Shown here in pieces: positions 22,632 to 40,459 of a stretch of DNA of 44,971 bases (within the stretch, counting starts at the first letter, position 1; each line of letters opens with the position of its first letter). The DNA lies in assembly GCA_017505725.1 (NCBI GenBank), contig JAFVOR010000061.1, positions 1 through 44,971 on the forward strand, given 5' to 3'. The position numbers and the translations under genes are program-made. The notes beneath the pieces were generated by a model. That model saw only the letters and a program-made list of their open reading frames with translations. It was not told the DNA's origin and did no database searches. The stretch comes from Alistipes sp. GTDB lineage: Bacteria > Bacteroidota > Bacteroidia > Bacteroidales > Rikenellaceae.

Positions 22632-22660
22632 TGCTCGCCCGCAACAACAAACCTAAAGAA

Positions 22661-22689
22661 CCTGTCTAACTTTTTACTTGTTAGACAGG
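22661..22689 (+). terminator. Terminator of Nudix-porX
   Basis: A perfect 10-bp stem CCTGTCTAAC/GTTAGACAGG with a T/A-rich loop lies 29 bases after the porX stop codon and is followed by CTCTTG. It lies between two convergent operons. The T-tract is poor on the plus strand. Confidence 0.75.
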
Positions 22690-22750
22690 CTCTTGAAAAT
22701 TTAACATAAACTTTTTTTCGGTCAAACCTCAAAAAAGTTTGCTAATTAGG

Positions 22751-25700
22751 TTAATTCTTGAGAATCTCGCAATCACTATAACTTAATGGGGCTACAGTAA
22801 GATAAAGCAAGCGGTCACCATCATCCGAACTATGGAACTTTGGGAAAGTCGGGAAAACCTTAGCCAAACTAGTTGTATACTCTGCTACATTATGCGAGAT
22901 AATGTGTTTCATAACCTGAATATCAGGGTCGGCACTAGGGCTGAAATGGATGAATAAGTCGGACTGACTATCACACTCATTTGCCATTTTCCTATCCACC
23001 GGAACCAACCACTCATAAGCTGGGCCTGCGATATGACGCGACATACTGAAACTATTAATCTTAGAATAGTTGCGCAGAAATATAGTTGCTTTATCAACCA
23101 GACTATGTCGTAGATCTGCCAAATCCTCTGTGCTTATCAACGCATCCGATTTGATAGTTTCGCAGAAGTCTATCTCAAACTCATTGTTTCCCTTTATGTT
23201 CTCATTAAAGAACTGATCCAAAAGCTCTTTATCAAGCAATGAGATAATAGGGATGCCTTTGTTCGACATATCCGCCATTGACATCAGGTCTGTCTCCTTG
23301 TACCACGCACGCAAGTTGTTGAGCATCTTGAGAAGGTTGAGATATCTATTCTCCAACAAATTGTGAACTCTGCTTATCTCCTGCATCAGGTGATATGTCG
23401 AATAGGTCTTATACTTAAGTCCCTGCTTAATCTTCTCATCTCTCCTTATTGCTTCATCGAGCTGAGCGTCGTCGTTTGCGAGCTCGTGACTCTCTTCGCG
23501 CCAAGCCTTCCACCTCTTGGTAGTGATATAGATCACACAAATCAGACCTGGAACAATAACATAGAGCATTTTTAAGTAGTTACAGTGGTATAATCCACCT
23601 GACAATTCAACCAGGCTATTGATACCCCAAATCAGCAACCAACAGAGAAGAACAACAACACTACTTATGATAGTTGTCTTAAGGTAGAATTTCTTCAACT
23701 CCTTCTTCTTCAACTCTTGCATCTCCTCGATCTCCTTGCGTCTATTGCGAGCATCGTCGATGCGACTTTGCAAGGCCTCTGTCGACGATTTTAGGTAGCC
23801 ATCGCGAGTGAGAGGCTGCGACGAGAACTGTGCGATGAGGGTCTGGCACGCAATAAACAGCTCGTTGCGTTGCTGTCGTGATTGGGCCAGGTCGCTCTCA
23901 ATTTTCGCAAGAGAAGCCTGCGCAATATAGTATCGAATGTTCAAATCCTGGTCATCGACTGCCAGGAAAGGAATATTCTCCATCTTGAGCGTTGGCAGAG
24001 ACTCAATCTCGGTAAAGATGGTTGCACTCTGACACAATCGCTCGTGGTCGATATATTCATAAGGTACATAGCAATAGCCATTCTCGCCCCAATCTACATC
24101 CCAAGAGTTACGGACAATGAAGCGGCGAAGTTTTTCGCTATAACCCACCACGACCATAGCGTGCGAGGAGTGCTTATCCTTTTTCTCCTCATCTGGCAGA
24201 GGAGCAAACCTCTCCTCGATCTCCTCTTGTGATGGCATAGGAACATATCCATCATTAGATGCCGAGTTGAAGCTCTTGCACAGCGCCAACGAAATGGCAA
24301 CTGGATAACCCTCGTTCAATGCAGACTTGATAGCGGTGGTATTGCGCTCAACGCTCATAGCCTTGATCAATCTGCGTTTTGCAGCATCAGCATACGCCTC
24401 CGCAGATGGCTTGGTAGTCCAATCATCCTCGTTGTAGCGACAGAACTCCTCCTTTGCGATACCATACTTCATCAAGGATTGCACCGCTGGCGTAACGCGC
24501 GAACCAATGTCAGTATTGGTAGAAACATCGCCTGTGGAATCCATCTCACGCGCATTGTAGTACAGGAATGCCTCACTCAGGTCGATCTCCTCGTTGGTAC
24601 TCAACTTGCTCGCATACTCGAATATAGCGGTCAAGGCGTGAGCCAAGCACGAACCCTGCGAACCCTGACTTTGAATAGGGCGGAAACCTCCGCGCAAATC
24701 GATACTATCGCGAATAATCAAGTTTGGAGACGGTTGGTAAATATCCTCCAATGGATCCTCCTCCAAGTCGGGCATAAGACGGAAGTGGTGTCCCTTGAAG
24801 TGGAATACACCATCCTCGAGATAGCACTCCTCGACGTTATGACTCTTGTCGATTTGCTGACCCAAAATCTCGAGTTGCTCGGCCATAGCTCGACGCTGTG
24901 CCTCCAAATCGATAACCAGCGCATCCAGCTTTTTCAACTCCGGAATAGGATTCGTTGGTGCATTGTCGCCAACTTTGAGATAGCCACCGTAATCGTTCTC
25001 AATAAAGAAATCAAGGCTCTCAGAGAACAGGTCATAAATACGCAAACCATCTTGGTTGTAGACCGCCTGCGAGAATAGCTCGCATTCGTTCTTTGACAAC
25101 AATGTCGCCAATATAGCCACTTTGTCAGGTATGCTCTTCGTGCGATTTAGTCGCTCCAAACATTGGTTGTACACACCGACAGCCTCTTCGCAAAAACCTT
25201 TCTGCACCTCTGAGAAATCTTTCTCTTCAGTTATTTTGAAGAACTCGCTTAGGATGTTTAGCTTACCCTTGAGAAGGTTGGTTGCAATCTCGCTTGCCTT
25301 GCTCGAGCTGACATCTTTTTGGTTGACGCAAGACATATCCATCGCATTGAGTACAGTACGCTGGAGAAGATAGTCCACCAACATAAATTTATCAATCTCG
25401 ATCGATGCCAAACCAAATGCCACAACATCCTTGTAGACAACTACTGATGGGAATAACTCTGTATAGTGGTTGCTGCAACTTATGGCAAAGTGCGAAATAA
25501 CCTCGGTTAATGAATGGGCATTCAGACTGAGTGTGATTCCGTAACGATTTGAATTCTGCAAGACAATTAGATGCTGCGATTTGAGCAACTTTTTGTTTTT
25601 GCGGAATTCGGCGAATTTAACAGCCTGCTTAGCGGCGTGAGATACCTCCTTGAGACCAGGCTCCACGATGTGGGCCAAATCCTCACAGTAGCCTACGAAA

Positions 25701-26122
25701 TCGATCTGCATAGGCATATTCACGCTTGTTATAGCTCCATAAAGATTCTGAACGGAACCCACAATCGCATCCTTATAGAGAGGGAAATGGAGCATTACAT
25801 AGAGCTGCGTTGCTCCCATCGTGGCCGTGATAAGTTCGTTGTACACATCACGCCACTGCTTGCCAAACTCGGCAAGTTTAGTGTCCGAATAGTCGGACCA
25901 CACAAGTTCCGTATAACGATCTTGGCCTATCAACTCGGGCTGAGGTGCGCTGTTCTTGACGACTAGGCGACTGAGCTGCACGGTCTCGTCCTTGATGTCG
26001 GCGACCAGATAGTTGATGTTAGCAATAGCCGTACTACCGCCAATGCGTAGCGTAGTACGGCCAATGCCCATTACCAAGTCTTTATACTCCTTGCCAACAA
26101 ATATGTGTGCAAAGATAGACAT
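22751..26122 (-). CDS. Membrane-tethered papain-like (C1) protease with large N-terminal domain
   Basis: The 1,123-residue protein is the last gene of the vWA-tubulin operon, starting 6 bases after the tubulin-like gene. Residues about 480-705 form a papain-type C1 peptidase: Gln486 (oxyanion hole) and Cys492 in QGSQGSCLAHA, His654 in SSHAMVVVGY and Asn672 in VRNSWDVDWGENGY. A coiled-coil (about 735-810) leads to two membrane spans (about 814-833 and 848-867). With no signal peptide, the protease and the 250-residue tail should both face the cytosol. Residues 1-300 match no domain I know; a stretch near 232-262 recalls the tubulin-like partner. No pro-peptide is evident. Its target is unknown, and the tubulin-like protein or the membrane partner are obvious candidates. 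Confidence 0.88.
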   Translation of the reverse strand: MSIFAHIFVGKEYKDLVMGIGRTTLRIGGSTAIANINYLVADIKDETVQLSRLVVKNSAPQPELIGQDRYTELVWSDYSDTKLAEFGKQWRDVYNELITATMGATQLYVMLHFPLYKDAIVGSVQNLYGAITSVNMPMQIDFVGYCEDLAHIVEPGLKEVSHAAKQAVKFAEFRKNKKLLKSQHLIVLQNSNRYGITLSLNAHSLTEVISHFAISCSNHYTELFPSVVVYKDVVAFGLASIEIDKFMLVDYLLQRTVLNAMDMSCVNQKDVSSSKASEIATNLLKGKLNILSEFFKITEEKDFSEVQKGFCEEAVGVYNQCLERLNRTKSIPDKVAILATLLSKNECELFSQAVYNQDGLRIYDLFSESLDFFIENDYGGYLKVGDNAPTNPIPELKKLDALVIDLEAQRRAMAEQLEILGQQIDKSHNVEECYLEDGVFHFKGHHFRLMPDLEEDPLEDIYQPSPNLIIRDSIDLRGGFRPIQSQGSQGSCLAHALTAIFEYASKLSTNEEIDLSEAFLYYNAREMDSTGDVSTNTDIGSRVTPAVQSLMKYGIAKEEFCRYNEDDWTTKPSAEAYADAAKRRLIKAMSVERNTTAIKSALNEGYPVAISLALCKSFNSASNDGYVPMPSQEEIEERFAPLPDEEKKDKHSSHAMVVVGYSEKLRRFIVRNSWDVDWGENGYCYVPYEYIDHERLCQSATIFTEIESLPTLKMENIPFLAVDDQDLNIRYYIAQASLAKIESDLAQSRQQRNELFIACQTLIAQFSSQPLTRDGYLKSSTEALQSRIDDARNRRKEIEEMQELKKKELKKFYLKTTIISSVVVLLCWLLIWGINSLVELSGGLYHCNYLKMLYVIVPGLICVIYITTKRWKAWREESHELANDDAQLDEAIRRDEKIKQGLKYKTYSTYHLMQEISRVHNLLENRYLNLLKMLNNLRAWYKETDLMSMADMSNKGIPIISLLDKELLDQFFNENIKGNNEFEIDFCETIKSDALISTEDLADLRHSLVDKATIFLRNYSKINSFSMSRHIAGPAYEWLVPVDRKMANECDSQSDLFIHFSPSADPDIQVMKHIISHNVAEYTTSLAKVFPTFPKFHSSDDGDRLLYLTVAPLSYSDCEILKN

Positions 26123-26128
26123 AATAGA

Positions 26129-29068
26129 TTATTTTAGATTCTCAAGCGCGATAAGAAGGCCACTAGTTTCGTCGGTGATGTAATCCCACTCAGCAGTAAT
26201 CTGTGTGAGCTCCATCTTCTTCTGGCTATAGTATGTAGCACTTGCCTTATCGGTACAGAGTACAAGGTCGATATAGTCCTCCATTCCCATCGCTTTTACC
26301 TCGGCAATCATCGCCTTCAGTACTTCACTACCCTTGGTAGATTTCAACCCCAGGATAAAGGAGTGGAGATCAGACTTGAACTGCGGGAAGGTGATCGCCT
26401 TGAAGTTCTCGAATGCCTTGAGACGGTCGCCAGTGCTTACACTACCGATAGGATACCACTTCTTGTCTGCGCCATTGTTCTTGCTGCGCTCCTCCCAGAA
26501 GTAGTACTTACCCTTACGGTTAGCGATATACTTAGGATGGGTAACATCCTCCTTACGCAACTGCTTGATAGGGGTACCATCGCTCTCCTTCTCCATAATG
26601 TAGCACTGCTCGGCAACATCTACGTAGCCGAAGATTTGACCACATACCCAGTAGAACATAGCCTCGTTTGGAAGTTCCGGCTCGAGTTTGAAGTTCTGCT
26701 TGCGCATCTCCTCAAACAAGATCTTGTCGAAGTGAGGGTTGAACTCTGTAGAACCCGGCATCATCGAATCCTTAATTTGCTGCTCATATTCGTCGACAAC
26801 CATATCGTTTAAGGCTCCTATGCAATAAGGAATCACAGCATACTCAGCGCGGAAGATAAACATCTTCTGGCGGAGCTGCTCACAAGGATTTGGGTAGAAT
26901 TTGCAGCTTGCAGCTTGTGCTACATTGCGGGTAAATGCCCTATCGGTCTCAAGTCTGCACTGCTCGTTCTGGTCGCAGTAGAGTGAAACCATATACTCAC
27001 GCACGATTATGTCGGTTGGCTTTTTACCTCTACTATTCTCCTGACCACGATTATCAATTCGCAACAAGCTGCTCGACTTAGCCTCAATGTTGGTCTTGAG
27101 AATATCGTACTCCTTGTCGCTGAGGGTGTTGATAACATCAATCAGGCGCTTCTCGCGATAAGCCACCGCCTCAGGCAACATCGATACATAGCCATCGATA
27201 GCCGGCTTCAACTCCGTCTGAATATCCATCTCGAGCAGGGGCTTTGAAATGGTTGTCATAAAGCCAGCAAGACCGACCTCGTCCGGGTTGAACGGCATAT
27301 TTGTGCGTATATTGTAAGAGAGGTCGTACTCGAATGTAGATGCGCTCGTCTCGTGTATCTTCTCGGTAGCATTTTCGGTGTACGCCTTGCTCAAGTTGAC
27401 GAGCAGTTGGTCTATAGCTTCAATCTGCTGACCATAAACCTCCACCTTGGCAATCAAGGCTGTGAAGATATCGCGAGCAGCCTCACGACGCTTAATCTCG
27501 AGTGCCAACCTAAGAGCCGATTTAGCAGAAGATGAAACATTGTTCAAACGATCCTCCTTACCGCCTCCACGGAATACCTGAAATGCTTTGTGGCTATACT
27601 CGTCGTACTCCTTAAGGGCACCCTCTACAGCCTGAGTCTTAGAGTTGAGCTCCTGTGTGAGCTTTGTTGCCTCCTGTTCCATCTCTCGCTTGCAAATCTG
27701 CAAGTACGACTTCAGAGTTACGAGGAACTGCTTAGCATTACCAATGCCACACTCTGCGCTCATAATAGCATTCAACTTATCACCCAGGGCCTCAATCTTA
27801 CTCTCTTTAAGAGCCTCGATATCCTTCTCGGTAGGGAACTCCACAAGGGTGTTCATATACCTAGAAGTCTCGGTCTTGATATCATTGAAGGTGTCATCAA
27901 TAGTTATCTTCGGATTCTTGAGCTTACCCATACTCTCTGGCGAGTAGATCGAATCGATGAGGAGGTCGTGACCCTCGTTCTCGCGAACCTTCACCAAGTC
28001 CATCCAGTCGGTTACCACCTTCTCAATTCCGTTGCCCTCCAAGCGCATCTTGCGGATAAGCTCTATGGCTGCTTTCGAGCCATAGATATCTGCCAACAAG
28101 TCGCCCTTGTATACTATCTGGCAACCACCCAGGGCCTGCACCCAACCTTTTTTGTGGAGAATACCATAACTACCAAGTTGCCAACGAACATTGCTCTGAC
28201 CACCCTGAATAGCAGAACCCATATCACCGCTACTTGCAAAGAGGCAAGAACCTACAGCCTCGCAAAGAGAATTTATATCATTGATAGAGTATCCATTTGC
28301 GGTTTGGTTGTCAATTACAAAGAACTCGTTGAAAATAGGGCCTGTCAACTCACGTACAGCACCATTAATCTTAAACTCAATTGGATTTGTTGGTGTTGCC
28401 GACATTAAGTAGTCGAGGTCAACAATTGAAGAGTACGCATTCACTCGAACCTTTGGGGTTTGCACACCTAGAGGGTCCATAGCTCGGAATACTCCGTGAA
28501 GAACGCCATAACCAACGATATGAGCTCGCTTGCCATAGTTGCGGTGAACCATCTCGGCAATATTGATAAATGAACCTGCGCCGGTTCCACCCGCCAACGA
28601 CATCACAATGTGGATATCTATCTCCTCGCAAGGTACCGATTCACCCTTTTCATTTACATATGTGATACTTGAAACCTGCTGCCAGCAACGCTTCAAAGCT
28701 GGCTCAATAGAGCTCATTACGTACTCGGTGTAGAAGCGACCAGTGGTGCGCACCTGACTTGCTCCATCGGTGATTTTGTGAGATATAGTATCTGTATTAC
28801 CATCAAAAACCCAACGATAAGCGCCTTTTTTAGCGCGACTCTCATACTGTTCACGAGGACTACCGTTATAGTTAATCTGCACTGCATCATCACCCATTGG
28901 TGTTGGCAATTCTGGACTATCAATATCCGCAAGGTTGAAATCCATAGCCAAGAAGGCGATGTAGTTAGGGATATTCCCCTTACCGTGGATATCCTCATAC
29001 AGTTTTTTTGCTTGTGAGATGGCTCTGATACCAGTACCACCCAAACCGATGTAGATTGTTGGTCTCAT
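26129..29068 (-). CDS. Large tubulin/FtsZ-like GTPase
   Basis: The 979-residue protein has two nucleotide-binding loops of the tubulin/FtsZ superfamily: IGLGGTG near the N-terminus (7-13, start of the Rossmann fold) and SLAGGTGAGSF (157-167), equivalent to the tubulin signature GGGTGSG. This fits the Tubulin_2 group of bacterial tubulin-like proteins, which are much longer than FtsZ (about 400). The middle part (about 390-560) is rich in heptad-like helices. The C-terminal 350 residues are of unknown fold. There is no signal or membrane span. It lies between a lipoprotein with one span and a membrane-tethered C1 protease, with gaps of 49 and 6 bases, so a cytoplasmic GTP-dependent polymer or switch working at the membrane is likely. 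This is not cell-division FtsZ. Confidence 0.87.
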   Translation of the reverse strand: MRPTIYIGLGGTGIRAISQAKKLYEDIHGKGNIPNYIAFLAMDFNLADIDSPELPTPMGDDAVQINYNGSPREQYESRAKKGAYRWVFDGNTDTISHKITDGASQVRTTGRFYTEYVMSSIEPALKRCWQQVSSITYVNEKGESVPCEEIDIHIVMSLAGGTGAGSFINIAEMVHRNYGKRAHIVGYGVLHGVFRAMDPLGVQTPKVRVNAYSSIVDLDYLMSATPTNPIEFKINGAVRELTGPIFNEFFVIDNQTANGYSINDINSLCEAVGSCLFASSGDMGSAIQGGQSNVRWQLGSYGILHKKGWVQALGGCQIVYKGDLLADIYGSKAAIELIRKMRLEGNGIEKVVTDWMDLVKVRENEGHDLLIDSIYSPESMGKLKNPKITIDDTFNDIKTETSRYMNTLVEFPTEKDIEALKESKIEALGDKLNAIMSAECGIGNAKQFLVTLKSYLQICKREMEQEATKLTQELNSKTQAVEGALKEYDEYSHKAFQVFRGGGKEDRLNNVSSSAKSALRLALEIKRREAARDIFTALIAKVEVYGQQIEAIDQLLVNLSKAYTENATEKIHETSASTFEYDLSYNIRTNMPFNPDEVGLAGFMTTISKPLLEMDIQTELKPAIDGYVSMLPEAVAYREKRLIDVINTLSDKEYDILKTNIEAKSSSLLRIDNRGQENSRGKKPTDIIVREYMVSLYCDQNEQCRLETDRAFTRNVAQAASCKFYPNPCEQLRQKMFIFRAEYAVIPYCIGALNDMVVDEYEQQIKDSMMPGSTEFNPHFDKILFEEMRKQNFKLEPELPNEAMFYWVCGQIFGYVDVAEQCYIMEKESDGTPIKQLRKEDVTHPKYIANRKGKYYFWEERSKNNGADKKWYPIGSVSTGDRLKAFENFKAITFPQFKSDLHSFILGLKSTKGSEVLKAMIAEVKAMGMEDYIDLVLCTDKASATYYSQKKMELTQITAEWDYITDETSGLLIALENLK

Positions 29069-29117
29069 TTTGGATTACTAGTTTGAGTTAATAATATGTT
29101 ATTCTATTTGATACGTA

Positions 29118-29996
29118 TTACATTGTTTGAATGCCAATCTTTTGGTTGTCGTCGTTGTAGACATAGAATATCTCCTTGCGCTCTGGCATATCGAATGGCG
29201 AAGAGTCGACACTAAGGCGCGTGGAGACACGAATGCAACCTTTACGTGCCGGATGAATCGTTACATCCTGTGTGAAACACTCGTTGACAACGATTGCACT
29301 ACGCACCATAAAAATGGTGTGCAAGAAATTCTGCTTGCAAGGCTTGTTCGTAAGGATAATTTTGGTGCAATTCTTGCACGACACTCGAACCTCGTCTGTG
29401 CTACCTGGGTAGGTTATATATACATTCGCAAACTTCAAGTGCTTTCGGCTGATAAATACTATCCAAATAATGTACAATATTAAGAGCGCAATTAGACCTA
29501 TCATAGTCCACTTGTTTGCCGGATTCATAATATCGACCTTCTTGGCGATAACACCTTCGCCAAGTTTAATATATTCGATTCTATCAAGGCCACCCAACGA
29601 TACCTCCTTCAAGTAGTAGAGATGATTACCCTCGGCAACAGCATCGGTAAACTCGATACCCAACTCTACATCGCCCTCGTTACCCTTGACACGAAGAATG
29701 TTGTCTGCGCACACCGCACCATTTTTATAGACCACAATGCCTTCTGCCTCGACCATCTTCTCGGAAGGCAACTTCTCGTAGACCTTGAACTCGAAGGTGT
29801 TGTTGCTCAAATCTTGAGCATCCTCGTTAAGACAAAAGTTCAGGGTGCGAGTCATAACGACCGGCTCATATTTCTTGAGCAGAGAGCTGCGATAATACTT
29901 GGTTTTGCCCCAGTCCGCACCAGTAGACTTCTGCTGACAACCTACCAATGCAAAGGCCACTAAAGCCGATACAACTATGCTAATAATACGTCTCAT
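29118..29996 (-). CDS. Bitopic lipoprotein of the vWA-tubulin operon
   Basis: The 292-residue protein starts with a lipoprotein signal (Cys20 in ALVGC). A periplasmic beta-rich region of about 140 residues follows, then one clear membrane span (164-183, TMIGLIALLILYIIWIVFIS), a positive RKH flank and a cytosolic tail of about 110 residues containing a CKNC motif. Lipid anchor and span together make it an inner-membrane linker between periplasm and cytosol. I do not recognise either soluble domain. Its place between the exported vWA gene (8 bases upstream) and the tubulin-like gene suggests that it couples the two. Confidence 0.78.
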   Translation of the reverse strand: MRRIISIVVSALVAFALVGCQQKSTGADWGKTKYYRSSLLKKYEPVVMTRTLNFCLNEDAQDLSNNTFEFKVYEKLPSEKMVEAEGIVVYKNGAVCADNILRVKGNEGDVELGIEFTDAVAEGNHLYYLKEVSLGGLDRIEYIKLGEGVIAKKVDIMNPANKWTMIGLIALLILYIIWIVFISRKHLKFANVYITYPGSTDEVRVSCKNCTKIILTNKPCKQNFLHTIFMVRSAIVVNECFTQDVTIHPARKGCIRVSTRLSVDSSPFDMPERKEIFYVYNDDNQKIGIQTM

Positions 29997-30004
29997 ATCT
30001 CAAA

Positions 30005-31030
30005 TTAATCGATTAGTTCTACCTTCAAAACACGCTCCTTCTTGTTCTTGATAACAAGAGTAACCTCAGATGGAGTGAGCACAACTTTTACCTTCTCGCT
30101 ATTCTCGCTATATATCTTGCTGGCCTCCACAAGGTCCAATTGCAATTTGCAATATGTCTCCTCTTGCGGGAACTGATTCTTGAGTGTCTCGTAATCAAAC
30201 TGGAGTGCAAGGCATATGCTACCACCTACGATTGTCGCCTTCTCGTCGATACGCAGTGGACAACCTGGCTCACTCTTGATAGTCACCTCTACGCCATCAG
30301 GAATAGCTGTTTCGGAATTCTTTGCAAATGTTATCTTTAGACTCTTATCATTCTTAATATTGAGGTCTACTCTCTGCGAGGGGGTGAGATTGAGAGTTTC
30401 AATCTGATTTGTAAAACGATCTGTATCCGTAAAATCAACATTTGGAATAGGCTCAATAATAGGCCTCTTTGCGTTCTCTGTAGTCAAAACATAAACCATA
30501 AAGTCTGTGGCGTCGGAACTACGATTCCACTCTTTGATAGCATCCACAAGCGCCTCGGATCCGCCAGCCATATTCTGCACACCATCGGTAAGCACCACAA
30601 CTTTGTCATTTCTACTTTTGTCTTGATAGTTTTGTAGCGCATAGTAGATAGGACCCGCAATGTTTGTTCTGCTGTGTGTCAGCTTGAAGCACGCAGGACC
30701 GGTCTCCTTGATTTTGGCAATCACAGATCTCTTCGACTCAGGAGTTGCATCATCAGCGGTGATGATGTAGTCCCTGAGCACATCCTCCTGAAATGGAATA
30801 ACTACAATCCGAGTGCTAGGTATAGAGATTTTTTCTATATCTTTGATAAGATATTCCTCCACCTTGTCGTAGACATTAGGAGTCTTTACACCGATGACAG
30901 TACCCTCGCCAATCATCGATCGCGTCACATCCCACACATAGATATTGGTGTTTTGCGCCACTGCCAGGTGCGCAAACAATAGCGCACACAAAGTAAACAA
31001 AAGTTTAATTTTTCTCATCGCGGTATTCAT
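30005..31030 (-). CDS. Exported von Willebrand factor A (vWA) protein
   Basis: First gene of the four-gene operon. The 341-residue protein has a signal peptide ending LAVA-Q and a vWA fold with a metal-ion-dependent adhesion site: DVTRS (34-38, a DxTxS variant of DxSxS), Thr122 in SRTNIAGP and Asp149 in VVVLTDG. After about residue 210 there is a second beta-rich domain. vWA domains with an intact metal site bind protein partners. Its export puts the ligand in the periplasm. The first in-frame ATG (31030) is used; the ATG at 31018 gives a slightly shorter signal. A consensus promoter lies about 125 bases upstream. Confidence 0.87.
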   Translation of the reverse strand: MNTAMRKIKLLFTLCALLFAHLAVAQNTNIYVWDVTRSMIGEGTVIGVKTPNVYDKVEEYLIKDIEKISIPSTRIVVIPFQEDVLRDYIITADDATPESKRSVIAKIKETGPACFKLTHSRTNIAGPIYYALQNYQDKSRNDKVVVLTDGVQNMAGGSEALVDAIKEWNRSSDATDFMVYVLTTENAKRPIIEPIPNVDFTDTDRFTNQIETLNLTPSQRVDLNIKNDKSLKITFAKNSETAIPDGVEVTIKSEPGCPLRIDEKATIVGGSICLALQFDYETLKNQFPQEETYCKLQLDLVEASKIYSENSEKVKVVLTPSEVTLVIKNKKERVLKVELID

Positions 31031-31152
31031 TTATTATTAAGTCGGTTTTATAGACTCCCAAAGTCAACAAAATCACCTAGACCCTCTACCACTAAAGAAG
31101 AGGCAGCAGGATTTTTCCTATCATCAACCTCACAAAAGAGTGTATTTCTATG

Positions 31153-31184
31153 CAAAGATAAGAAAAAACTTTGGATTTTTCAAA
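31153..31184 (-). promoter_or_regulatory. Promoter of the vWA-tubulin-protease operon
   Basis: On the minus strand TTTG-N20-TATCTTTG matches the Bacteroidetes consensus exactly. The predicted start near 31146 leaves a leader of about 115 bases before the vWA ATG. It is the only promoter consensus found for the four genes. Confidence 0.8.
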
Positions 31185-31370: not shown

Positions 31371-31382
31371 GGGGGGGGGGGG
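31371..31382 (+). repeat. G12 homopolymer upstream of the fimbrial promoter
   Basis: Twelve consecutive G residues lie 42 bases upstream of the fimbrial -7 element, at roughly -57 to -68 from the expected transcription start. It is the longest homopolymer seen in the window and lies in non-coding DNA. Such runs change length by slipped-strand mispairing. Confidence 0.9.
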
Positions 31383-31496: not shown

Positions 31497-32813
31497 GTGA
31501 GGTTAGTTAGAAATATATTCGTTTTTCTAATTCTCACCCTTATATCCATCGTAGTGGTTCGGGCGCAGAATACCGAGGCAAAAAACCTCGGTAGCTCTTT
31601 TGCGTCCGCACGCGTGAGCGAGCACGATCACGCCCTTGCACGCATTGCCGAGGCTGAAGCGCAGCTGAATCTGCAGAGTGTATCGGTGCTTTATGAGCAC
31701 GACAAGGCGTGGCCTCGCTGGTCATATAAGAACAACATCGTAGCCTACCGCAAGTTGGTAGCGATGGTCAAGCAGGTTGCCTCAAAAAAGGAGGGCAGCC
31801 ACACCATCGTCATCGAAGGCTCGGCATCCCCGATTGGTAGCGAGAAGTACAACCACGCCCTCGCTCTGCGTCGTGCAAATGTGTTGCGCAACATCATCGC
31901 CAAGATGGAGGGTGGCGACAAACTGACAATTCACACCACATCGGCAGGTGAGGATTGGAAGGCTTTTGAGTCGTACATAGAGGCGACCTATCAGGCCGAG
32001 AATCGCCGAGAGGTGCTCGCCATTCTTCGTATGAACGCATCGATTGTCCAGAAGGAGAGGTATATCCACGCCCTCGATGCGGGTAAGACCTGGCGATTGC
32101 TTACGACAAAGTTTATGGGCTCGGCACGAAATGCCACTGTGGTGCGCATTGTCGAGGAGAAGGCGTTGCTCGACGATCGCGCCTTCTGGTCAATGAAGCC
32201 CCTCGAACTTATTCCACCTCTGCGCTTCGAATACAAAACAAATACAGAGCCTGTCGAGCTGCGCAAGCCTGTTGTGGCAATACGCTCGAATCTGCTTGTT
32301 CCGGCACTCAACTTTGGTGTCGAGGTGCCTATAGGAAACAATTGGTCGGTGGGGGCCGACTACTACTACCCTTGGGTATGGCCAAAGAGAGACAACAAGA
32401 ACTGTTTCGAGTTGCTCGCCTGGGGTATCGAGGGCCGCTACTGGTTTGGCAAGGAGAGAACCGTATTTGACCGCCTTCAGGGCCATTCGATAGGTTTGTA
32501 CGGCTATATGGGCTACTACGACTTCGAGCGCAACTTCCACGGCCATCAGGGCGAGTTTGTGAATGTGGGCGTGGACTACACCTACGCAATGGCAGTAGGT
32601 AAGAAAAAGTCGGTACATTTCGAATTCTCCATCGGTCTGGGCTTTATCTACTCGCAAGCGCGACAATACTCCGTAATCGAGGCCAGTGGTCCGCTCATCA
32701 GCGACAAGATAACCAAGAGTATAGGCTTCTTCGGCCCTACCAAGGCGAATATCTCGCTCGTAGTGCCAATTTTCCAGAGAGTTAAACCAAACGACAAGGA
32801 GGTGCGACGATGA
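31497..32813 (+). CDS. OmpA-like plus DUF3575 outer-membrane protein
   Basis: The 438-residue protein starts at a GTG, the only suitable start before its signal peptide (ending VVRA-Q). Residues about 55-165 resemble an OmpA-type peptidoglycan-binding domain: VSVLYEHDKAWPRWSYKNN, then IEGSASPIGSEKYNHALALRRANVL. The C-terminal 170 residues (from KPVVAIRSNLLVPALNFGVEVPI onward, with NWSVGADYYYPW) match DUF3575, an outer-membrane barrel family common at the head of Bacteroidales fimbrial loci. It overlaps the next gene by 4 bases (ATGA). It is probably the outer-membrane anchor that fixes the fimbrial base to the wall. Confidence 0.85.
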   Translation: MRLVRNIFVFLILTLISIVVVRAQNTEAKNLGSSFASARVSEHDHALARIAEAEAQLNLQSVSVLYEHDKAWPRWSYKNNIVAYRKLVAMVKQVASKKEGSHTIVIEGSASPIGSEKYNHALALRRANVLRNIIAKMEGGDKLTIHTTSAGEDWKAFESYIEATYQAENRREVLAILRMNASIVQKERYIHALDAGKTWRLLTTKFMGSARNATVVRIVEEKALLDDRAFWSMKPLELIPPLRFEYKTNTEPVELRKPVVAIRSNLLVPALNFGVEVPIGNNWSVGADYYYPWVWPKRDNKNCFELLAWGIEGRYWFGKERTVFDRLQGHSIGLYGYMGYYDFERNFHGHQGEFVNVGVDYTYAMAVGKKKSVHFEFSIGLGFIYSQARQYSVIEASGPLISDKITKSIGFFGPTKANISLVVPIFQRVKPNDKEVRR

Positions 32814-33760
32814 GTAGAGTGCGTTACATACTGCTCGTCGTTGTGGCGGCTCTTATCTCGGTGGCGTGTCAGCGTCGTCCGATGGAGGATATGTACCTCA
32901 AGGTATATCTCGACCTCACCATCGAGGAGGAGATTGTAAACTACGACTATGTCGACCCGGGTTTGATGCGTGTGGCATTCTTCGATGCCGAAACGGGAGA
33001 GTATCTCAGCCACGACTTCGTATCGAGCAAGGGAGGATACATATTCGCACCGTATGGCGATGTCGATATGGTTGTCTACAACATCGAGGCGGGCGAGACG
33101 CGAGTGCGTAACTACTATGTATGGAGTGATGTAGAGGCCTACACCAATGAGATCAGCGAGCAGCAGCGTAGCCCATTCACGCGCTATCTGCAGTCGCGTG
33201 TCGAGACCCGACCTTCGTATGACAACATCCGAGTGACACCCGGACACCTCTTTGTGGCACGCGAGCGAAATATCCACATCCCTCAACATATCACCGAGGA
33301 TGTCTTTATCATCAAGACCACAGCACGCACCATAGTCGAGAGCTGGACCGTCGAGATCAATGGCATAACGGGTATGGAGTGGGTTGGAAGTGTCGCTATG
33401 ATACTCTCGGGTCAGGTAGGTTCGAACTTTTTGGCCACAAACACACGCTCAACCGACCCCTTGGCAATCTACTTCGATGTCATCAGCGCACAGCGTCGCA
33501 GTGCGTTTATATCCTCGCACTTCGAGACCTTCGGACGCGAAAAGACGAGTGGCGATGTGGCATTGTTGAGCATCCTCTTTACCGATATTGCCGGCCACCC
33601 GTATATGTACAACTTCGACGTGTCGGACCAGATGGAGGATAACCCTCGACAGCATATCGTGATAAACGGAGATATAGACATACCTAAGCCTGAGGTCGGA
33701 GGTGGCTTTGCCCCTACGGTCGACGATTGGAAGGAGTTTGAGTACGATATCGACATCTAA
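32810..33760 (+). CDS. DUF5119 lipoprotein of the fimbrial locus
   Basis: The 316-residue lipoprotein (Cys20 in LISVAC, followed by QRRPMEDMYLKVYLDL) shows a FimB/Mfa2-like beta-sandwich pattern: VDPGLMRVAFFDAETGEYLSHDFV, then GDVDMVVYNIEAGETRV. DUF5119 proteins are usually found beside DUF3575 barrels and fimbrillins. It has no Arg-type maturation site like those of the downstream fimbrillins, which fits a role as base or anchor subunit kept on the cell. Translational coupling to the upstream barrel is shown by the ATGA overlap. Confidence 0.83.
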   Translation: MSRVRYILLVVVAALISVACQRRPMEDMYLKVYLDLTIEEEIVNYDYVDPGLMRVAFFDAETGEYLSHDFVSSKGGYIFAPYGDVDMVVYNIEAGETRVRNYYVWSDVEAYTNEISEQQRSPFTRYLQSRVETRPSYDNIRVTPGHLFVARERNIHIPQHITEDVFIIKTTARTIVESWTVEINGITGMEWVGSVAMILSGQVGSNFLATNTRSTDPLAIYFDVISAQRRSAFISSHFETFGREKTSGDVALLSILFTDIAGHPYMYNFDVSDQMEDNPRQHIVINGDIDIPKPEVGGGFAPTVDDWKEFEYDIDI

Positions 33761-33916
33761 CGAGTGAAGAGAGATGCTAACAACCTAAAAACTTTGATTA
33801 ATACGAAACAGAGAAAGAGAACAGTTTAACAAACACATTTTTACACATTTACACATTTTTTAACAAACCTTTTTTAATTAACTTTTTTATTAACCATTTT
33901 TTAAAACATTTAAATT
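33761..33916 (+). other. A/T-rich leader of the major fimbrillin gene
   Basis: A 156-base gap, far larger than the other gaps upstream in this operon, is built of A/T-rich runs with repeated ACATTT and TTTTTTAA motifs. No exact TAnnTTTG element is seen. It may be a translation-enhancing or stabilising leader, or hold a promoter of another form, for the major subunit gene. Confidence 0.35.
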
Positions 33917-34867
33917 ATGAAAAAGATTTTCTTGTTTGCTGCAGCAGCGATGGTATCGTTGAGCAGTTGTGTTCAGACCTCGGAGATTTACACAGGTAAG
34001 TTGCAGGAGATGGGTTTCAAGTCGGCCGTAACTCGTGGTATCATTCAGACCAACGATGATATGACCTACCCAATCTCAGTTACTGCTGTATGGGATGACG
34101 CGCAGGACGGTAACTATTCAAGCTACTTCGAGAACGGCAAGTTCGTTTACGATGCAGGTACTGAGTTGTGGAAGGGTGAGCCTGCTCGCTACTGGCCAAC
34201 CAGCGGTGATATGCAGTTCATCGGCCTTTGCCCTTATCCGGCAAACTCGTCTATCACCCCTTCGTACAAGACTAACGGTGAGATCGAGAAGGTTGTTTGG
34301 GGTACTATCGACAACAACTTGATGGATCAGCACGATGTTGTCTTCTCGGACCTCCTCAGCGTTGAGGCTCCTCAGACTTCGGCTCAGCCATTGCTCTTCC
34401 ACCACGCTTACGCTCAGCTTAACGTAACCTTCAAGAAGACCGATTCGGCTGCTGCCGTTATCGTTAAGAATGTCTCTGTTAAGGATGTGAACTTGTCGGG
34501 TATCTTGACCGTAACCCCTGTAGTTGGTGCAAAGAGCGAGGCTACTTGGCAGGCTGGTTTGCCAATCTCTCGCTACTTCTTGCCAGAGACTACAACTGGT
34601 GTTGAGAATGGCACTTTGGATGCAACCCTCGAGGCTGCTACTCCATTTGCTCCACAGCCAGTTCTCGTAATCCCTGCTGCACAGACCAAGATCGTTATCG
34701 TCTACACTATCGATGGTCACGAGCACACTTACACTCACACTCTTTCGGGCAACTGGGAGATGGGTTACAAGTACACCTACAACTACACTATCAACGTGAA
34801 CGAGATTATCTTCGACTGCACAGTTGAGGATTGGATTCCAGTTGATGGCGGTAACATCACAATCTAA
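33917..34867 (+). CDS. Major fimbrillin (FimA/Mfa1-like)
   Basis: The 316-residue lipoprotein precursor has Cys18 in LSSC and an Arg40-Gly site in KSAVTRGIIQ, the pattern at which type V fimbrillins are trimmed by an Arg-specific protease before donor-strand polymerisation. Two beta-sandwich domains follow, with typical HAYAQLNVTFKK and PAAQTKIVIVYTIDG segments and a C-terminal VEDWIPVDGG. Codon use differs from every neighbour: GCT, GTT, ACT/ACC and AAG dominate, as in highly expressed genes. A long A/T-rich leader precedes it and a GC hairpin follows. Together these mark it as the shaft subunit, with the surrounding fimbrillins as minor ones. Confidence 0.86.
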   Translation: MKKIFLFAAAAMVSLSSCVQTSEIYTGKLQEMGFKSAVTRGIIQTNDDMTYPISVTAVWDDAQDGNYSSYFENGKFVYDAGTELWKGEPARYWPTSGDMQFIGLCPYPANSSITPSYKTNGEIEKVVWGTIDNNLMDQHDVVFSDLLSVEAPQTSAQPLLFHHAYAQLNVTFKKTDSAAAVIVKNVSVKDVNLSGILTVTPVVGAKSEATWQAGLPISRYFLPETTTGVENGTLDATLEAATPFAPQPVLVIPAAQTKIVIVYTIDGHEHTYTHTLSGNWEMGYKYTYNYTINVNEIIFDCTVEDWIPVDGGNITI

Positions 34868-34882
34868 TTGTTACAAAATTTA

Positions 34883-34912
34883 ACCTGTGGGGGTTTGATC
34901 GCCCCCTCAGGT
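34883..34912 (+). terminator. GC hairpin after the major fimbrillin gene
   Basis: ACCTG-t-GGGGG pairs with CCCCC-t-CAGGT around an 8-base loop, 16 bases after the stop codon. No T-run follows, so it may be a partial terminator or a 3' stabiliser that separates the major subunit message from the minor subunit genes. Confidence 0.65.
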
Positions 34913-34916
34913 ACTA

Positions 34917-35099
34917 CGAATTGATTGAGGATTGAGGATTGGAATGCAGAATGCAGAATGCAGAATGCAAAATGCAAAACCGACGACAAACCGAGAGCAG
35001 AGGCTGCTTGCAGACTATGCCGAGGTGCGAAGGAGGAAAAGCCTGCAAAGCAGGGTTAATGCAAAATTAGTTTTCCGCTTTCCGTTTTCCGTTTTCCGT
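34917..35099 (+). repeat. Dispersed intergenic repeat, copy 2 (heptads plus GC core)
   Basis: The gap before the next fimbrillin gene holds ATTGAGG heptads (about 34919-34940), five AATGCAG/AATGCAA heptads (34943-34977), a GC core (34983-35036) similar to the minus strand of 5514-5577, a small CCTGC/GCAGG hairpin, and four TTTTCCG-type heptads (35071-35098). The last run ends 13 bases before the ATG at 35112. No gene is seen. Confidence 0.75.
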
Positions 35100-35111
35100 T
35101 TAGAATAAATT

Positions 35112-36077
35112 ATGCGTAAGGTATTGACAATAGTATTGGCATTGTTGGTTTTGGCAAGTTGTGAAACAGCAAAACCGATAGGTAATGATGTGTTGACCGA
35201 GATAGGCTTCGCTTCACAGTATGGCCGCGCTCTCATCGAGGGCGTTGAGGGGCTGCAACAACAGGAGCTCAAGCTCTTTGGCACCTATACTCTCGATGGT
35301 AATACGGCACGCATATTCGATGCCGAGCGTCTATTCTACAACACCACAGCCGAGACACCTTGCTGGGACTACGACAACACCCAGTATTGGATATCGAAGG
35401 CCTCGTATAATTTCTGTGCCGTATGTCCATACGAAGCCCCTTGCACCTTCTCTGACGCAGAGGGACGAGTGGTGCTTGGCAACTACGAGGCAACCACGGG
35501 TGGCCCCGATCTGTTGTACGCCTCGGCACAGCGCGACCTAGCCGAGAACGAGGACTTCTCCACCGTACACCTCAACTTCCGCCACGCCTGTGCTGCGTTG
35601 CAGTTCAATATCATCAACGCATCGAATGCCACATTGATTGATGTACGCAATATCCGTCTGGTGGGTTTGCACAATGTCGGCTCTTTCCATTTTGGAGCAA
35701 ATGGCTCGGCGCAGTGGATTCTGAGCGAGACGGTGCTGAACGAGCTGTCGCAAGCATTTGGTGGCGCTTGCACCCTGCCCGACAATGGCTTGCCGGTAAA
35801 CCTCGATGTACGACATCCGCTCTACGATGTGGGTACAATATTGGTATTGCCACAGACCATCTACAAGACCGATGTAACGCTCCACCTCGAGTATAAGAAG
35901 CAGGGCGATGCCGAGTATGCCATACGAAACATACAACTTGGACGACTTGCGAGTTCTTCGGTGCCTACCGAGTGGAAGTCGGGCGAGAAGTACGAATACA
36001 ATTTGACCATCACCGACAACACCATAACCACCGAGGTCAGGGTTGTTGATTGGATTGACCACTATGTCGATTTATAG
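35112..36077 (+). CDS. Minor fimbrillin family protein
   Basis: The 321-residue lipoprotein (Cys17 in VLASC) has the two-domain fimbrillin pattern: a QYGRALIEG segment that may be the Arg maturation site, then LNFRHACAALQFNIINAS in the first domain and a C-terminal ITTEVRVVDWIDHYVDL strand, comparable with the VEDWIPV end of the major subunit. Codon use is GC-rich, unlike the major fimbrillin. It is followed by the next fimbrillin gene after 11 bases with a purine-rich GGGAGAGAG site. It is likely an accessory shaft or tip-adaptor subunit. Confidence 0.83.
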   Translation: MRKVLTIVLALLVLASCETAKPIGNDVLTEIGFASQYGRALIEGVEGLQQQELKLFGTYTLDGNTARIFDAERLFYNTTAETPCWDYDNTQYWISKASYNFCAVCPYEAPCTFSDAEGRVVLGNYEATTGGPDLLYASAQRDLAENEDFSTVHLNFRHACAALQFNIINASNATLIDVRNIRLVGLHNVGSFHFGANGSAQWILSETVLNELSQAFGGACTLPDNGLPVNLDVRHPLYDVGTILVLPQTIYKTDVTLHLEYKKQGDAEYAIRNIQLGRLASSSVPTEWKSGEKYEYNLTITDNTITTEVRVVDWIDHYVDL

Positions 36078-36088
36078 AGGGAGAGAGT

Positions 36089-37081
36089 ATGAAGAGAGTA
36101 TATATTCTATTGTTTGCAGTGTTGACATTGTCGGCGTGCGGTAGCGTTGGCGAGGAGATGGCAATCGCACAATCGGGCGAGATTGCCTTCAATGCCGAGC
36201 ATATCCAGCGAGGTGCAATGACGCAGGAGGATATAAACAACCGATCGGTCTATATCTATGGCGTGCAGAACAACACCTCGCGCATCTACAACAACGCCCC
36301 CATCACTCGCGATGTGGCTACGGGTAAGTGGTTTCCTTCGACCAAGCGCAGCTGGGTGGAGGGTAGCAGCTACTCCTTCTACGGTTATGCCTACAACACA
36401 ATGAATGGTCTGACCCTCGTAAGCGGAAAGGATGCTCTCGAGATAGAGGTGCAGCAACCTACCACCTACAACGAGGCGGCGATGATAGACTTCCTCCTCT
36501 CCTACACCTACAAGGTGGCGGATGGTGCGATGAAGCCTATCGTGCAGCTCTACCTCGAGCACGCAATGTCGCTGGTAGAGATATATGTGGTGCGAGGCAA
36601 TATGTTCGATGCGCGATTGAAGAGGATGACCTTCGAGAATATCTACACATCGGGATCGATGAAGTGTACAGCGCAGGCGATAGCCAACTCGGGCGAGCGC
36701 AATGTATGGCAGACAACACCTTCGGGATCGAATAGTGTAGTATACACCTTTGCGCCAACATCGACAACCATAATTGGCGACGAGCGCGAGAATACCGAGG
36801 CGGTGATGAAGATAATGTGCATCCCTCAGCAGATTACTGCAAATACCAAACTTACCATAGAGTACGAGATTAACGAGAAGGTGACGGCCGATAGCCCCGA
36901 TAACTTTGTGACACATAGCGAGGAGTTCTACCTCTTCAACTACAACCCTATCAACTACCAATCGGGCCATCGTGTTATCTATACGGCAACCATCGACTCG
37001 GGTGTGAACCTCGAAGGTGTGGTCAAGGATTGGATAAATGTCGATTATATCGAAGGTACTGTGTTGCCAGAGATTCATTAA
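36089..37081 (+). CDS. Minor fimbrillin family protein
   Basis: The 330-residue lipoprotein (Cys17 in TLSAC) has a possible maturation site IQRGAMTQ near residue 50. Fimbrillin features follow: RSVYIYGVQNNTSRIYNNAPI, WVEGSSYSFYGYAY, YLEHAMSLVEIYVV and a C-terminal VVKDWINVDYIEG strand. The close similarity of order to the previous gene points to paralogy. It ends 12 bases before the first giant tip gene, which has an AGGAGGAG site in that gap, unusually strong for Bacteroidota. Confidence 0.83.
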   Translation: MKRVYILLFAVLTLSACGSVGEEMAIAQSGEIAFNAEHIQRGAMTQEDINNRSVYIYGVQNNTSRIYNNAPITRDVATGKWFPSTKRSWVEGSSYSFYGYAYNTMNGLTLVSGKDALEIEVQQPTTYNEAAMIDFLLSYTYKVADGAMKPIVQLYLEHAMSLVEIYVVRGNMFDARLKRMTFENIYTSGSMKCTAQAIANSGERNVWQTTPSGSNSVVYTFAPTSTTIIGDERENTEAVMKIMCIPQQITANTKLTIEYEINEKVTADSPDNFVTHSEEFYLFNYNPINYQSGHRVIYTATIDSGVNLEGVVKDWINVDYIEGTVLPEIH

Positions 37082-37093
37082 GGAGGAGCAGAG

Positions 37094-40000: not shown

Positions 40001-40450
40001 AATGTGGCACTGTGGGGCTACGCGGTGAAGGACTACTCGATTCAGGGTCAGACCTTCTCGAAGACGATGCACGACCCTTGCCCTCCGGGCTACCGAACTC
40101 CATTCCACCACGCGTGGGGCTATGGCAACAATCAGGGCTACACCTATGGCGAGAATGGCGGAAATATCAACCTGGGCAATGGTGAGCAGAACTTCGATAG
40201 CTATGGATTGGTCTTCAACAAGGCGAACTTCGATAGGTCGTGGTATCCGTTTATGGGCTATAGACACCCTCAAGACGGAGGCTACGAGGATGTTGGACAA
40301 CAGGGCCGCCTGGTTACGGGTATGCCAATGGGTCAGTACAACACCCGTTCCTATATCTATACCAACACCTACACGGGACAGATTGCCAACTCGGGTGGTG
40401 ATGGTTGTGGACCGGCTTACGGAATGCCTGCCCGTTGTCAAAAAGAGTAA
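37094..40450 (+). CDS. Giant fimbrial tip protein with two FISUMP-like modules
   Basis: The 1,118-residue lipoprotein (Cys21 in VAVGC) starts with a fimbrillin-type region (SSTRGN as a possible Arg site; FDHALCVYRIFVYTM; VSVSDWKRHDEVVEQ near 340). Two modules follow, each with the order ILW-WHIW-TD, DRN-GAT, YYQWGR, MHDPCPPGY or MYDPCPPGY, and WYPF-GY, at about 400-700 and 730-1115. These match the FISUMP (Fibrobacter succinogenes major paralogous) type domain found in adhesive surface proteins. The modules differ in sequence but keep all landmarks, so they arose by duplication. The likely role is an adhesive tip of the fimbria. The ligand is unknown. Confidence 0.83.
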   Translation: MKRFVIYISLMMAVALVAVGCLNDHSEEVQNLDSKRVRLWADVGYSPNIVYSPSSTRGNANSTSGIIDAATDTVISIGMARIDEVYSLSYPAFVDCGEPILAEMGLPNPNNSYIRDIVFTSAAQFFYNTTDYVKYVAWQPWRPGEEGYEYNSTSKATTVRIPITGDSDILYGNVTTGSQTEGFELMKFDHALCVYRIFVYTMQEEGTTQSMAWGALEDMQIEELPTSCVLTLPTDDEGLFGIAYEGSQTLKLSDENNNIYFSPGEKIPVGLSNRRMVAKCVAAPPTGGMLNISLSTSAATARQRVSIARNFKAGHAYDIVLRFSNHGLINADVSVSDWKRHDEVVEQEVDVDMFYNLSNYETANSYIVNSANYGYCFDGTVKGNGDNSLVGGNTSLNPGYIDILWDDTPMITVDGVQRKALTLDMHELSLGRVLFHVQGNPNDEGDKRLLSEGNVVIAAYDEEGGNILWTWHIWLTDRVKAQGCPNGYIVQDRNLGATSCEPDGGDGMDGLYYQWGRPTPFKPASSGVYGAVSKVPSTSRQVATVEEAVANPTTMYGSGYSDRYDWLATKNNALWGYQNEHTDLEKTMYDPCPPGYMVADMRVWQNIANYERSGGWHSGQGVNLSVASNNVWYPFQGYIESDGAENLTRDIVRLWSSAIDLRANNTPPYELRYTASGNAGWNSSESHRNRALPVRCVSSHSTAIVTNLSASQTANCYMVHRAGYYKFKASVRGNGVGSLLPLGGTTTAEINGGLSTTIAPAKVDFLWWQGDFTKVTGNASDVDNFIPMQILNNGELDSEGYVMFHVGEFHEGNVGLAAYDVDGEILWSWHIWFTDKPVDLITGNYTFMDRNIGATTTPNTAVSKLSFANTNERMATYGFYYQWGRKDPIMGPPAYNSGDETVSGKPKSSKYWIKNYNTGAWSSRTDIDTAAAATIPVATQNPMVFYKSTSMCGNNTCGWFPSTFADGYTNVALWGYAVKDYSIQGQTFSKTMHDPCPPGYRTPFHHAWGYGNNQGYTYGENGGNINLGNGEQNFDSYGLVFNKANFDRSWYPFMGYRHPQDGGYEDVGQQGRLVTGMPMGQYNTRSYIYTNTYTGQIANSGGDGCGPAYGMPARCQKE

Positions 40451-40459
40451 TAGGAGAAG

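What the first reader, a model, noticed from the sequence alone, without database searches (positions are those of the whole stretch)
22751..31184. Undescribed four-gene system: periplasmic vWA, bitopic lipoprotein, giant tubulin-like GTPase and membrane-tethered papain-like protease
Seen: four genes on one strand with gaps of 8, 49 and 6 bases behind one perfect promoter. Intact vWA metal site (DVTRS, Thr122, Asp149), tubulin loops (IGLGGTG; AGGTGAGS) and C1 catalytic residues (Gln486, Cys492, His654, Asn672). Known: each fold links to partner sensing, GTP-driven polymers and proteolysis. Inference: an exported vWA protein senses a partner, a bitopic lipoprotein passes the state across the membrane, the tubulin-like GTPase switches or polymerises, and the C1 enzyme cuts a cytosolic target. 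This could be a defence or cell-death module, a surface-assembly quality control system, or a cytoskeletal scaffold. I know of no characterised example of this set.
Basis: partly seen in the sequence, partly recalled or inferred. Interest (0 to 1): 0.88.

Follow-up and report, generated by a model that had tools for sequence, protein, structure and literature searches.

The report
Tubulin-like GTPase system with swappable protease
Some gut bacteria carry a four-gene kit in which a sensor outside the inner membrane appears wired, through a membrane protein, to a tubulin-like GTPase and a papain-type protease inside; the kit recurs in many related bacteria, but what it cuts and why is still untested.

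Summary
Window 22751-31030 (minus strand) encodes vWA, lipoprotein/TM, Tubulin_2 and papain-C1 proteins behind one promoter-like site. Of 61 Bacteroidota loci found with the tubulin-like protein, 55 have a C1 homologue immediately downstream, 4 another effector, and 2 end at a contig edge. In other loci vWA and lipoprotein are often one protein. Metal-site and catalytic residues are invariant in the rows aligned.

It is not wholly undescribed. The tubulin is FtsZl1; FtsZl1+vWA operons were predicted in 2010 to remodel membranes (PMC2875224), and tubulin+vWA conflict systems were described in 2020 (PMC7159879). Neither, as far as I read, puts a papain effector in such an operon.

New here: the effector has a conserved N-terminal domain on interchangeable C-termini (papain; transglutaminase-like; none recognised). 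Profile comparison suggests, without proving, that this domain is tubulin-like with the GTP loop lost, so effector and GTPase may co-assemble. Recurrent optional neighbours are nucleases and DUF6565/PqiA. The cassette is patchy and compositionally atypical.

Best reading: membrane-anchored, GTP-gated protease activation, for conflict/cell death or envelope-damage response. New variant of a known kind.

The parts
31153..31184 (-). promoter-like TTTG-N20-TATCTTTG upstream of the vWA gene
   Evidence: exact pattern match; 6 found in the window, 0.25 expected
30005..31030 (-). exported vWA-domain protein, 341 aa, putative sensor
   Evidence: 33-row profile matches 4cn8 E 1.6e-10; one N-terminal hydrophobic segment
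30917..30931 (-). MIDAS motif D34-V-T-R-S38 (completed by T122 and D149)
   Evidence: D34, S38, T122, D149 invariant in the 33 rows aligned
29118..29996 (-). lipoprotein with one TM helix, 292 aa, putative relay with cytosolic tail
   Evidence: Cys20 invariant in the 26 rows aligned; TM 164-182 with more positive charge after it; fused to vWA in other loci
29451..29507 (-). TM helix of the lipoprotein (residues 164-182)
   Evidence: hydropathy scan
26129..29068 (-). FtsZl1/Tubulin_2 GTPase-like protein, 979 aa
   Evidence: Pfam PF13809 E 1.8e-48; glycines of GLGGTG and GGTGAG invariant in 43 rows
28058..29056 (-). tubulin-like domain (residues 5-337)
22751..26122 (-). effector: N-domain + papain-type C1 peptidase + TM hairpin, 1123 aa
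24713..26122 (-). effector N-domain (residues 1-470); related to the N-part of the swapped effectors, best supported at residues about 101-243; possibly a tubulin-like domain without a working GTP loop
   Evidence: hhalign to swapped effectors prob 94, E 1.5e-7 over 139 columns; to the tubulin-like protein P 0.002-0.006
24053..24706 (-). C1 peptidase domain (residues 473-690) with Gln486/Cys492/His654/Asn672
   Evidence: (stretch 473-687); best solved relative 3ois E 7.1e-49
23519..23677 (-). TM hairpin of the effector (residues 816-868)
   Evidence: hydropathy scan of the window protein, positive charges outside both ends; some homologues show one segment only
22656..22740 (.). two inverted repeats between PorX and the effector gene, possible terminator
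   Evidence: I11 and I15; not among the terminator-like sites

Best explanation
An accessory, envelope-spanning signalling cassette. A periplasmic vWA protein senses a ligand or damage; a lipidated single-pass protein carries the state to its cytosolic tail; a tubulin-like GTPase (FtsZl1) assembles at the membrane together with the effector, whose N-terminal domain is a tubulin-like domain with a lost GTP loop; clustering activates the effector's peptidase. The effector end is exchangeable: papain here, transglutaminase-like elsewhere. Most likely use: a response to attack on the cell (phage, toxin or membrane damage) ending in self-directed proteolysis. Shown: gene set, order, conserved catalytic and metal residues, effector swaps, patchy distribution; topology by hydropathy only. 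Inferred: sensing, tubulin nature of the N-domain, GTP-driven co-assembly, activation by proximity, defence role.
For: C1 homologue directly downstream in 55 of 61 Bacteroidota loci, another protein in 4, contig edge in 2. The 4, plus L127, share an N-domain related to that of C1; L128 matches the merged N-domain profile (prob 74). L069 and L076 carry Transglut_core (the latter scanned as its duplicate L011). A trypsin-like gene follows a more distant tubulin in L119, beside a protein with only a weak vWA match, E 0.039. TUB and C1 trees agree closely (Mantel rho 0.873, largest of 999 permutations 0.328; 42 filtered rows, window included), the vWA less (0.296 and 0.387). Tubulin-like nature of the N-domain. 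Neighbours: Endonuclease_NS in 6 of 148 proteins, one ion channel in L041. Patchy: TUB in 4 of 61 genomes, own included; C1 in 4 of 41 of the genus, own included; TUB profile in 16 of 393 of the order. Cassette GC 0.458 against 0.509 in the flanks.
Against: No PADLOC model matches. Defence genes beside the loci: each of the 25 families shown (of 47) hits one protein, and no control was run. DUF6565 (8 of 148) and PqiA (5 of 148) neighbours point to envelope physiology. Almost no trace in phages, plasmids or viral contigs. The tubulin reading of the N-domain rests on weak to moderate profile scores: C1 N-domain 6-13 percent, merged profile 42 percent, and the swapped set falls from 86 to 57.5 percent with a broader tubulin profile. 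In the reverse search, the tubulin model ranks effectors no better than unrelated ORFs (best E 0.26). Of ten distant FtsZl1 partners, one matched the effector profile and one the tubulin profile.
Confidence: 0.4

Rival explanations
1. Envelope maintenance or membrane-remodelling machine, as proposed for FtsZl1 in 2010: the vWA and lipoprotein monitor or build envelope structures, the tubulin-like filament organises the membrane, and the peptidase matures or removes components.
For: The published prediction for the family; DUF6565 and PqiA directly upstream of the vWA gene in L013, L016, L021 and L036, both rare in the order (3 of 60 and 2 of 60 genomes); one of the four proteins exported and two membrane-anchored by hydropathy.
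Against: Patchy, compositionally atypical, at variable genomic sites; exchange of the effector domain fits conflict systems better; the two window genes on either side of the cassette are PorX, NUDIX, DUF3575/OmpA and DUF5119, not DUF6565 or PqiA, and the window's genome has no match to either family.
Confidence: 0.33
2. Not exclusive of the others: the effector N-domain is an unrelated adaptor and the peptidase is simply recruited to the membrane; the GTPase acts as a switch, not as a co-polymer.
For: C1 N-domain against tubulin only 6-13 percent probability; effector model against 1133 ORFs gives tubulins at E 6.5e-4, 0.004, 0.077 and an unrelated ORF at 0.098; reverse search at noise level.
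Against: The swapped effectors' N-domain gives 71-86 percent; the aligned region is collinear; reversed and 60 column-shuffled controls of the C1 comparison score at most 22.8 against 30.4.
Confidence: 0.42
3. Part of the function of the neighbouring PorX (type 9 secretion) or fimbrial genes.
For: Physical adjacency in this window.
Against: Long PorX matches are listed for 40 of 41 genus genomes but C1 for 4 of 41; none of 11 PorX loci fetched from relatives shows a cassette gene (two of these stretches end within about 2-4 kb of PorX); other cassettes have other neighbours.
Confidence: 0.03

Closest known systems
FtsZl1 (FtsZ-like 1) operons, Makarova and Koonin 2010, PMC2875224
   Same: Same tubulin family; large protein; vWA gene in most operons, some with predicted signal peptide or TM and most with intact MIDAS; membrane-associated partners.
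   Different: The text read names protein kinases, a P-loop GTPase and OmpA proteins as partners; protease, papain and peptidase have no occurrence in its main text. Its supplementary family lists were not available to me, so an unnamed partner family there could be this effector.
GAP1-N2 GTPase-centric conflict systems with tubulin and vWA, Kaur et al. 2020, PMC7159879
   Same: Tubulin plus vWA, membrane-proximal, predicted conflict function; Firmicutes versions have two tubulin genes, recalling a tubulin plus a degenerate second one.
   Different: Defined by GAP1 and zinc-ribbon GTPases; tubulin theme said to be restricted to Firmicutes and Actinobacteria; no peptidase effector in the tubulin theme of that section. 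[quoted passage not shown]
Peptidase plus NucA-like nuclease systems (System 3 of the same paper)
   Same: Peptidase coupled to Endonuclease_NS nuclease.
   Different: Core peptidase is trypsin-like (a papain-like domain only among accessory effectors), no tubulin in the section; the nuclease is an optional neighbour here and absent next to the window's cassette.
Papain-type cysteine protease 3ois
   Same: Closest solved relative of the peptidase domain, E 7.1e-49.
   Different: A 291-residue chain, about a quarter of the effector's length; the match is confined to the peptidase region.

Membership tests
FtsZl1 / Tubulin_2 | N-terminal FtsZ/tubulin-like domain with the GTP-binding loop | tested here: met
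   PF13809 E 1.8e-48; GGTGAG glycines invariant in 43 rows
FtsZl1 / Tubulin_2 | extended coiled-coil then mostly helical C-terminus | tested here: inconclusive
   profile positions 373-520 match an SMC6 chain, E 0.0095; no dedicated predictor or structure
FtsZl1 / Tubulin_2 | operon with a vWA protein | tested here: met
FtsZl1 / Tubulin_2 | frequent protein kinase, P-loop GTPase or OmpA partners | tested here: not met
   none in the 13 window proteins scanned except an OmpA/DUF3575 gene divergent at 31497 beside a fimbrial cluster; these families are not among those shared by two or more of 148 neighbours. The paper calls these partners frequent, not obligatory
GAP1-N2 conflict system | GAP1 protein and zinc-ribbon GTPase | tested here: inconclusive
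   none recognised and the 25 of 163 families shown; no GAP1 model was searched for
GAP1-N2 conflict system | tubulin theme limited to Firmicutes and Actinobacteria | tested here: not met
   61 of 68 loci are from records named as Bacteroidota
Known anti-phage systems (PADLOC 2.0) | match to a model | tested here: not met
   best hit E 0.026, for one of four proteins
Papain family C1 | Gln, Cys, His, Asn catalytic residues | tested here: met
Papain family C1 | proteolytic activity | not testable with these tools
   needs an assay
vWA domain | complete MIDAS | tested here: met
   D34, S38, T122, D149 invariant in the 33 rows aligned
alpha/beta-type tubulin pair | both partners have the tubulin fold | tested here: inconclusive
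   profile comparisons only; structure prediction not accepted

The most novel reading that the evidence does not exclude
A bacterial tubulin-based death or defence complex: a GTP-binding tubulin-like subunit and a second tubulin-like subunit that has lost GTP binding and carries an exchangeable protease co-assemble under a membrane sensor, so that filament formation switches the protease on, in the manner of an inflammasome or apoptosome but built from a tubulin pair.
Probability: 0.26. Interest if true: 0.9.

Novelty: new variant of a known kind. Interest (0 to 1): 0.62.

Why it matters
FtsZl1 proteins have been described since 2010; the paper listings I saw show no experimentally tested function for them that I recognised. 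A conserved four-gene unit with a catalytic, exchangeable output gives that question a handle: the output (proteolysis) can be assayed, and the swaps suggest which part is core (tubulin and effector N-domain) and which is exchangeable. If the N-domain is a second tubulin, it would be a tubulin pair used to gate an enzyme rather than to move or divide something.

Tried and rejected
Chance neighbours: rejected by gene-order conservation and tree agreement.

PorX or fimbrial link: rejected.

Carriage by phages or plasmids: 1 of 50,697 phage records (24 percent identity over 30 percent of the query), 3 of 72,556 plasmids (27-29 percent of the query covered), 1 viral-contig locus at 25 percent identity. 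Not supported.

Defence-island enrichment: PADLOC hits among 148 of 164 neighbours, one protein per family in the 25 of 47 families shown; no control run, so no conclusion.

An early hhalign row with probability 98.8 over only 26 columns between the effector N-domain and the C-terminal part of the tubulin-like protein was not reproduced with other settings (C-terminal part alone P 0.11); treated as an artefact.

Distant FtsZl1 partners as the same domain: of ten tested, only L128 matched the effector profile and L115 the tubulin profile.

The order-wide search with the swapped effectors found only the two genomes that had supplied rows of that alignment, so it shows rarity, not independent linkage.

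RNA families and tRNAs: only a tRNA-Gly near the contig end.

Literature: searches listed no paper that I recognised as describing this gene set; DUF6565 had no occurrence in the 15 papers listed of 358. Listings are capped and the library holds open-licence papers only.

Changed on checking: the odds of the main and the novel reading were lowered slightly because the reverse search and the broader tubulin profile weaken the tubulin reading of the N-domain, and because one search is not independent.
Full report
What is there. The window is contig C52 of a draft genome. Same-genus genomes G035, G029 and G003 have contigs of the same lengths as records named Alistipes sp. from deer gut, so the host is probably an Alistipes-like gut bacterium (inferred). 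Four open genes lie on the minus strand at 22751-31030 with gaps of 8, 49 and 6 bases, behind one perfect TTTG-N20-TANNTTTG site at 31153-31184. Pfam identifies Tubulin_2 (E 1.8e-48) and Peptidase_C1 (E 3e-15); the vWA and the lipoprotein are not recognised from the single sequences. As a 33-row profile the vWA matches 4cn8 at E 1.6e-10. The lipoprotein profile has no credible solved relative (best E 0.0085 to haspin kinases over 46 positions, taken as chance), and the tubulin profile matched no solved tubulin or FtsZ.

Topology, by a simple hydropathy scan. The vWA has one N-terminal hydrophobic segment, read as a signal peptide. The second protein has such a segment with a lipobox Cys20, and one TM helix with more positive charge after it. 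The tubulin-like protein has none. The C1 protein has a two-helix hairpin with positive charges outside both ends; some homologues show one segment only at this threshold (for example L012, L024, L028). This suggests a periplasmic vWA and cytosolic GTPase and protease.

Conservation. A scan of one genome per species returned 68 loci; 61 come from records named as Bacteroidota (L012-L070, L072, L076). In 55 of 61 a C1 homologue follows the tubulin directly (L036 only as a 297-residue piece at a contig end); in 4 another protein does (L065, L068, L069, L076); 2 end at a contig edge. By my ORF of 61 have separate vWA and lipoprotein genes both found by BLAST, and 23 have one long upstream ORF labelled a fusion; some of these hit only one half by BLAST, but the 8 aligned show both MIDAS and TM tail. 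The other 9 have contig ends or an upstream ORF not matched by BLAST; L020 lacks a called vWA. The scan was seeded from this family and so favours close relatives. The metal site is invariant in 33 rows, the lipobox in 26 and the catalytic residues in 41. On 42 filtered rows, window included, the C1 and tubulin trees agree strongly (rho 0.873; largest of 999 permutations 0.328), the vWA less (0.296 and 0.387; 0.209 and 0.222): a fixed core with a faster-changing sensor is one reading.

An exchangeable effector. The 4 exceptions and L127 encode proteins of 591-976 aa. L069 and L076 (as its duplicate L011) carry a transglutaminase-like domain; L065, L068, L127 and L128 match nothing above a Pfam cut-off. 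A profile of the N-terminal parts of L065, L068, L069, L076 and L127 matches the C1 N-domain (hhalign probability 94, E 1.5e-7) over 139 columns, C1 residues about 101-243; a greedier setting extends this to 416 columns. L128 matches the merged N-domain profile (74 percent). In 393 genomes of the order the swapped-type profile matched 2, which are the genomes that supplied two of its rows; the C1 profile matched end to end only in the window's own genome, while 100 others matched in the protease region. At most two candidates per genome were scored in these searches. A trypsin-like gene follows a more distant tubulin in L119.

Is the N-domain a tubulin? Swapped N-domains against the tubulin give probability 71-86 (P 3.6e-5 and 5.2e-6); the C1 N-domain gives 6-13 percent (P 0.002-0.006) over about 205 collinear columns. 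Against the C1 N-domain, other parts of the system score below 24; against the swapped set, the C1 C-terminal part reaches 29.7. For the C1 comparison, reversed (16.2, 16.6) and 60 column-shuffled controls (largest 22.8) lie below the real 30.4; no such null was run for the swapped set, and column shuffling is a weak null. Broader profiles: merged N-domain 42 percent (P 2.6e-4), swapped set 57.5 percent. Searching 1133 ORFs (some duplicated) with the N-domain model, the first hits after the effectors are tubulins (E 6.5e-4, 0.004, 0.077), with an unrelated ORF next at 0.098; in the reverse direction effectors rank no better than unrelated ORFs (best 0.26). In the alignment, the loop GGTGAG of the window tubulin falls opposite KDAIVG in the window effector, so one of four glycines remains.

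Optional neighbours. Among 148 of 164 neighbouring proteins prepared, the most shared families are DUF6565 (8), Endonuclease_NS (6) and PqiA (5). DUF6565 occurs in 3 of 60 and PqiA in 2 of 60 genomes of the order, so they are unlikely to be background; no baseline was taken for Endonuclease_NS. DUF6565 then PqiA sit directly before the vWA gene in L013, L016, L021 and L036. A cluster of seven related proteins, of which L023 was scanned singly as Endonuclease_NS, follows the effector in L023, L035, L039, L050, L051 and L056, and is second in L025; 5 of 6 examined have an N-terminal hydrophobic segment. Nucleases fit a conflict system, PqiA an envelope one; I could not decide between them.

Mobility. 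The tubulin is in 4 of 61 genomes and C1 in 4 of 41 genus genomes, own included; Tubulin_2 is in 13 of 395 genomes of the phylum and the tubulin profile in 16 of 393 of the order. None of 11 PorX loci fetched from relatives shows a cassette gene; two of these stretches end within about 2-4 kb of PorX. GC is 0.458 in the cassette against 0.509 in the flanks, and GC3 0.48-0.55 against 0.58-0.73 for ten other window genes. PorX places G029 nearer than G035 (81 and 75 percent) while the tubulin does the reverse (45 and 57 percent): one comparison, suggestive of transfer.

Known work. I read parts 1-2 of 5 plus found passages of PMC2875224, sections 29 and 32 plus passages of PMC7159879, and passages of PMC8195603 and PMC9871819. 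The 2010 paper defines FtsZl1 with vWA operons and predicts membrane remodelling; the 2020 paper describes tubulin+vWA conflict systems and, in other systems, transglutaminase-like and papain-like peptidases. Neither, as read, puts a papain effector in a tubulin+vWA operon.

Verdict. A real, conserved accessory system: a new variant of FtsZl1/vWA systems with a catalytic, exchangeable effector that may itself be tubulin-like. Mechanism and purpose are inferred.

Noticed in passing
window 31371-31382: A run of 12 G upstream of the divergent DUF3575/OmpA gene that starts the fimbrial cluster; a possible phase-variable tract.
   Followed up: no
L009 9840-12041 (G029) and L013 17616-20462: A second tubulin-like gene downstream of the effector; 948 aa in L013 (PF13809 E 4.1e-36), 733 aa with an altered GTP loop in G029.
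   Followed up: partly
L013, L016, L021, L036 upstream of vWA: DUF6565 plus single-domain PqiA genes directly before the vWA gene; both families are rare in the order.
   Followed up: partly
L013, L026, L059 downstream of the effector: A shared 322-358 aa protein family; the one member scanned singly (L013) has no Pfam match above a cut-off.
   Followed up: no
L114 2926-6486: A protein with protein kinase and HSP70 matches beside an FtsZl1 gene, recalling the HSP70/tubulin themes of the 2020 paper.
   Followed up: no
L111, L122, L125, L126, L129: More distant Tubulin_2 genes of the order lie in another context, with no vWA found by the A6 profile.
   Followed up: no
window 31497-44101: A fimbrial-type cluster (DUF3575, DUF5119, Mfa-like proteins, two proteins over 1100 aa) near PorX.
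   Followed up: no
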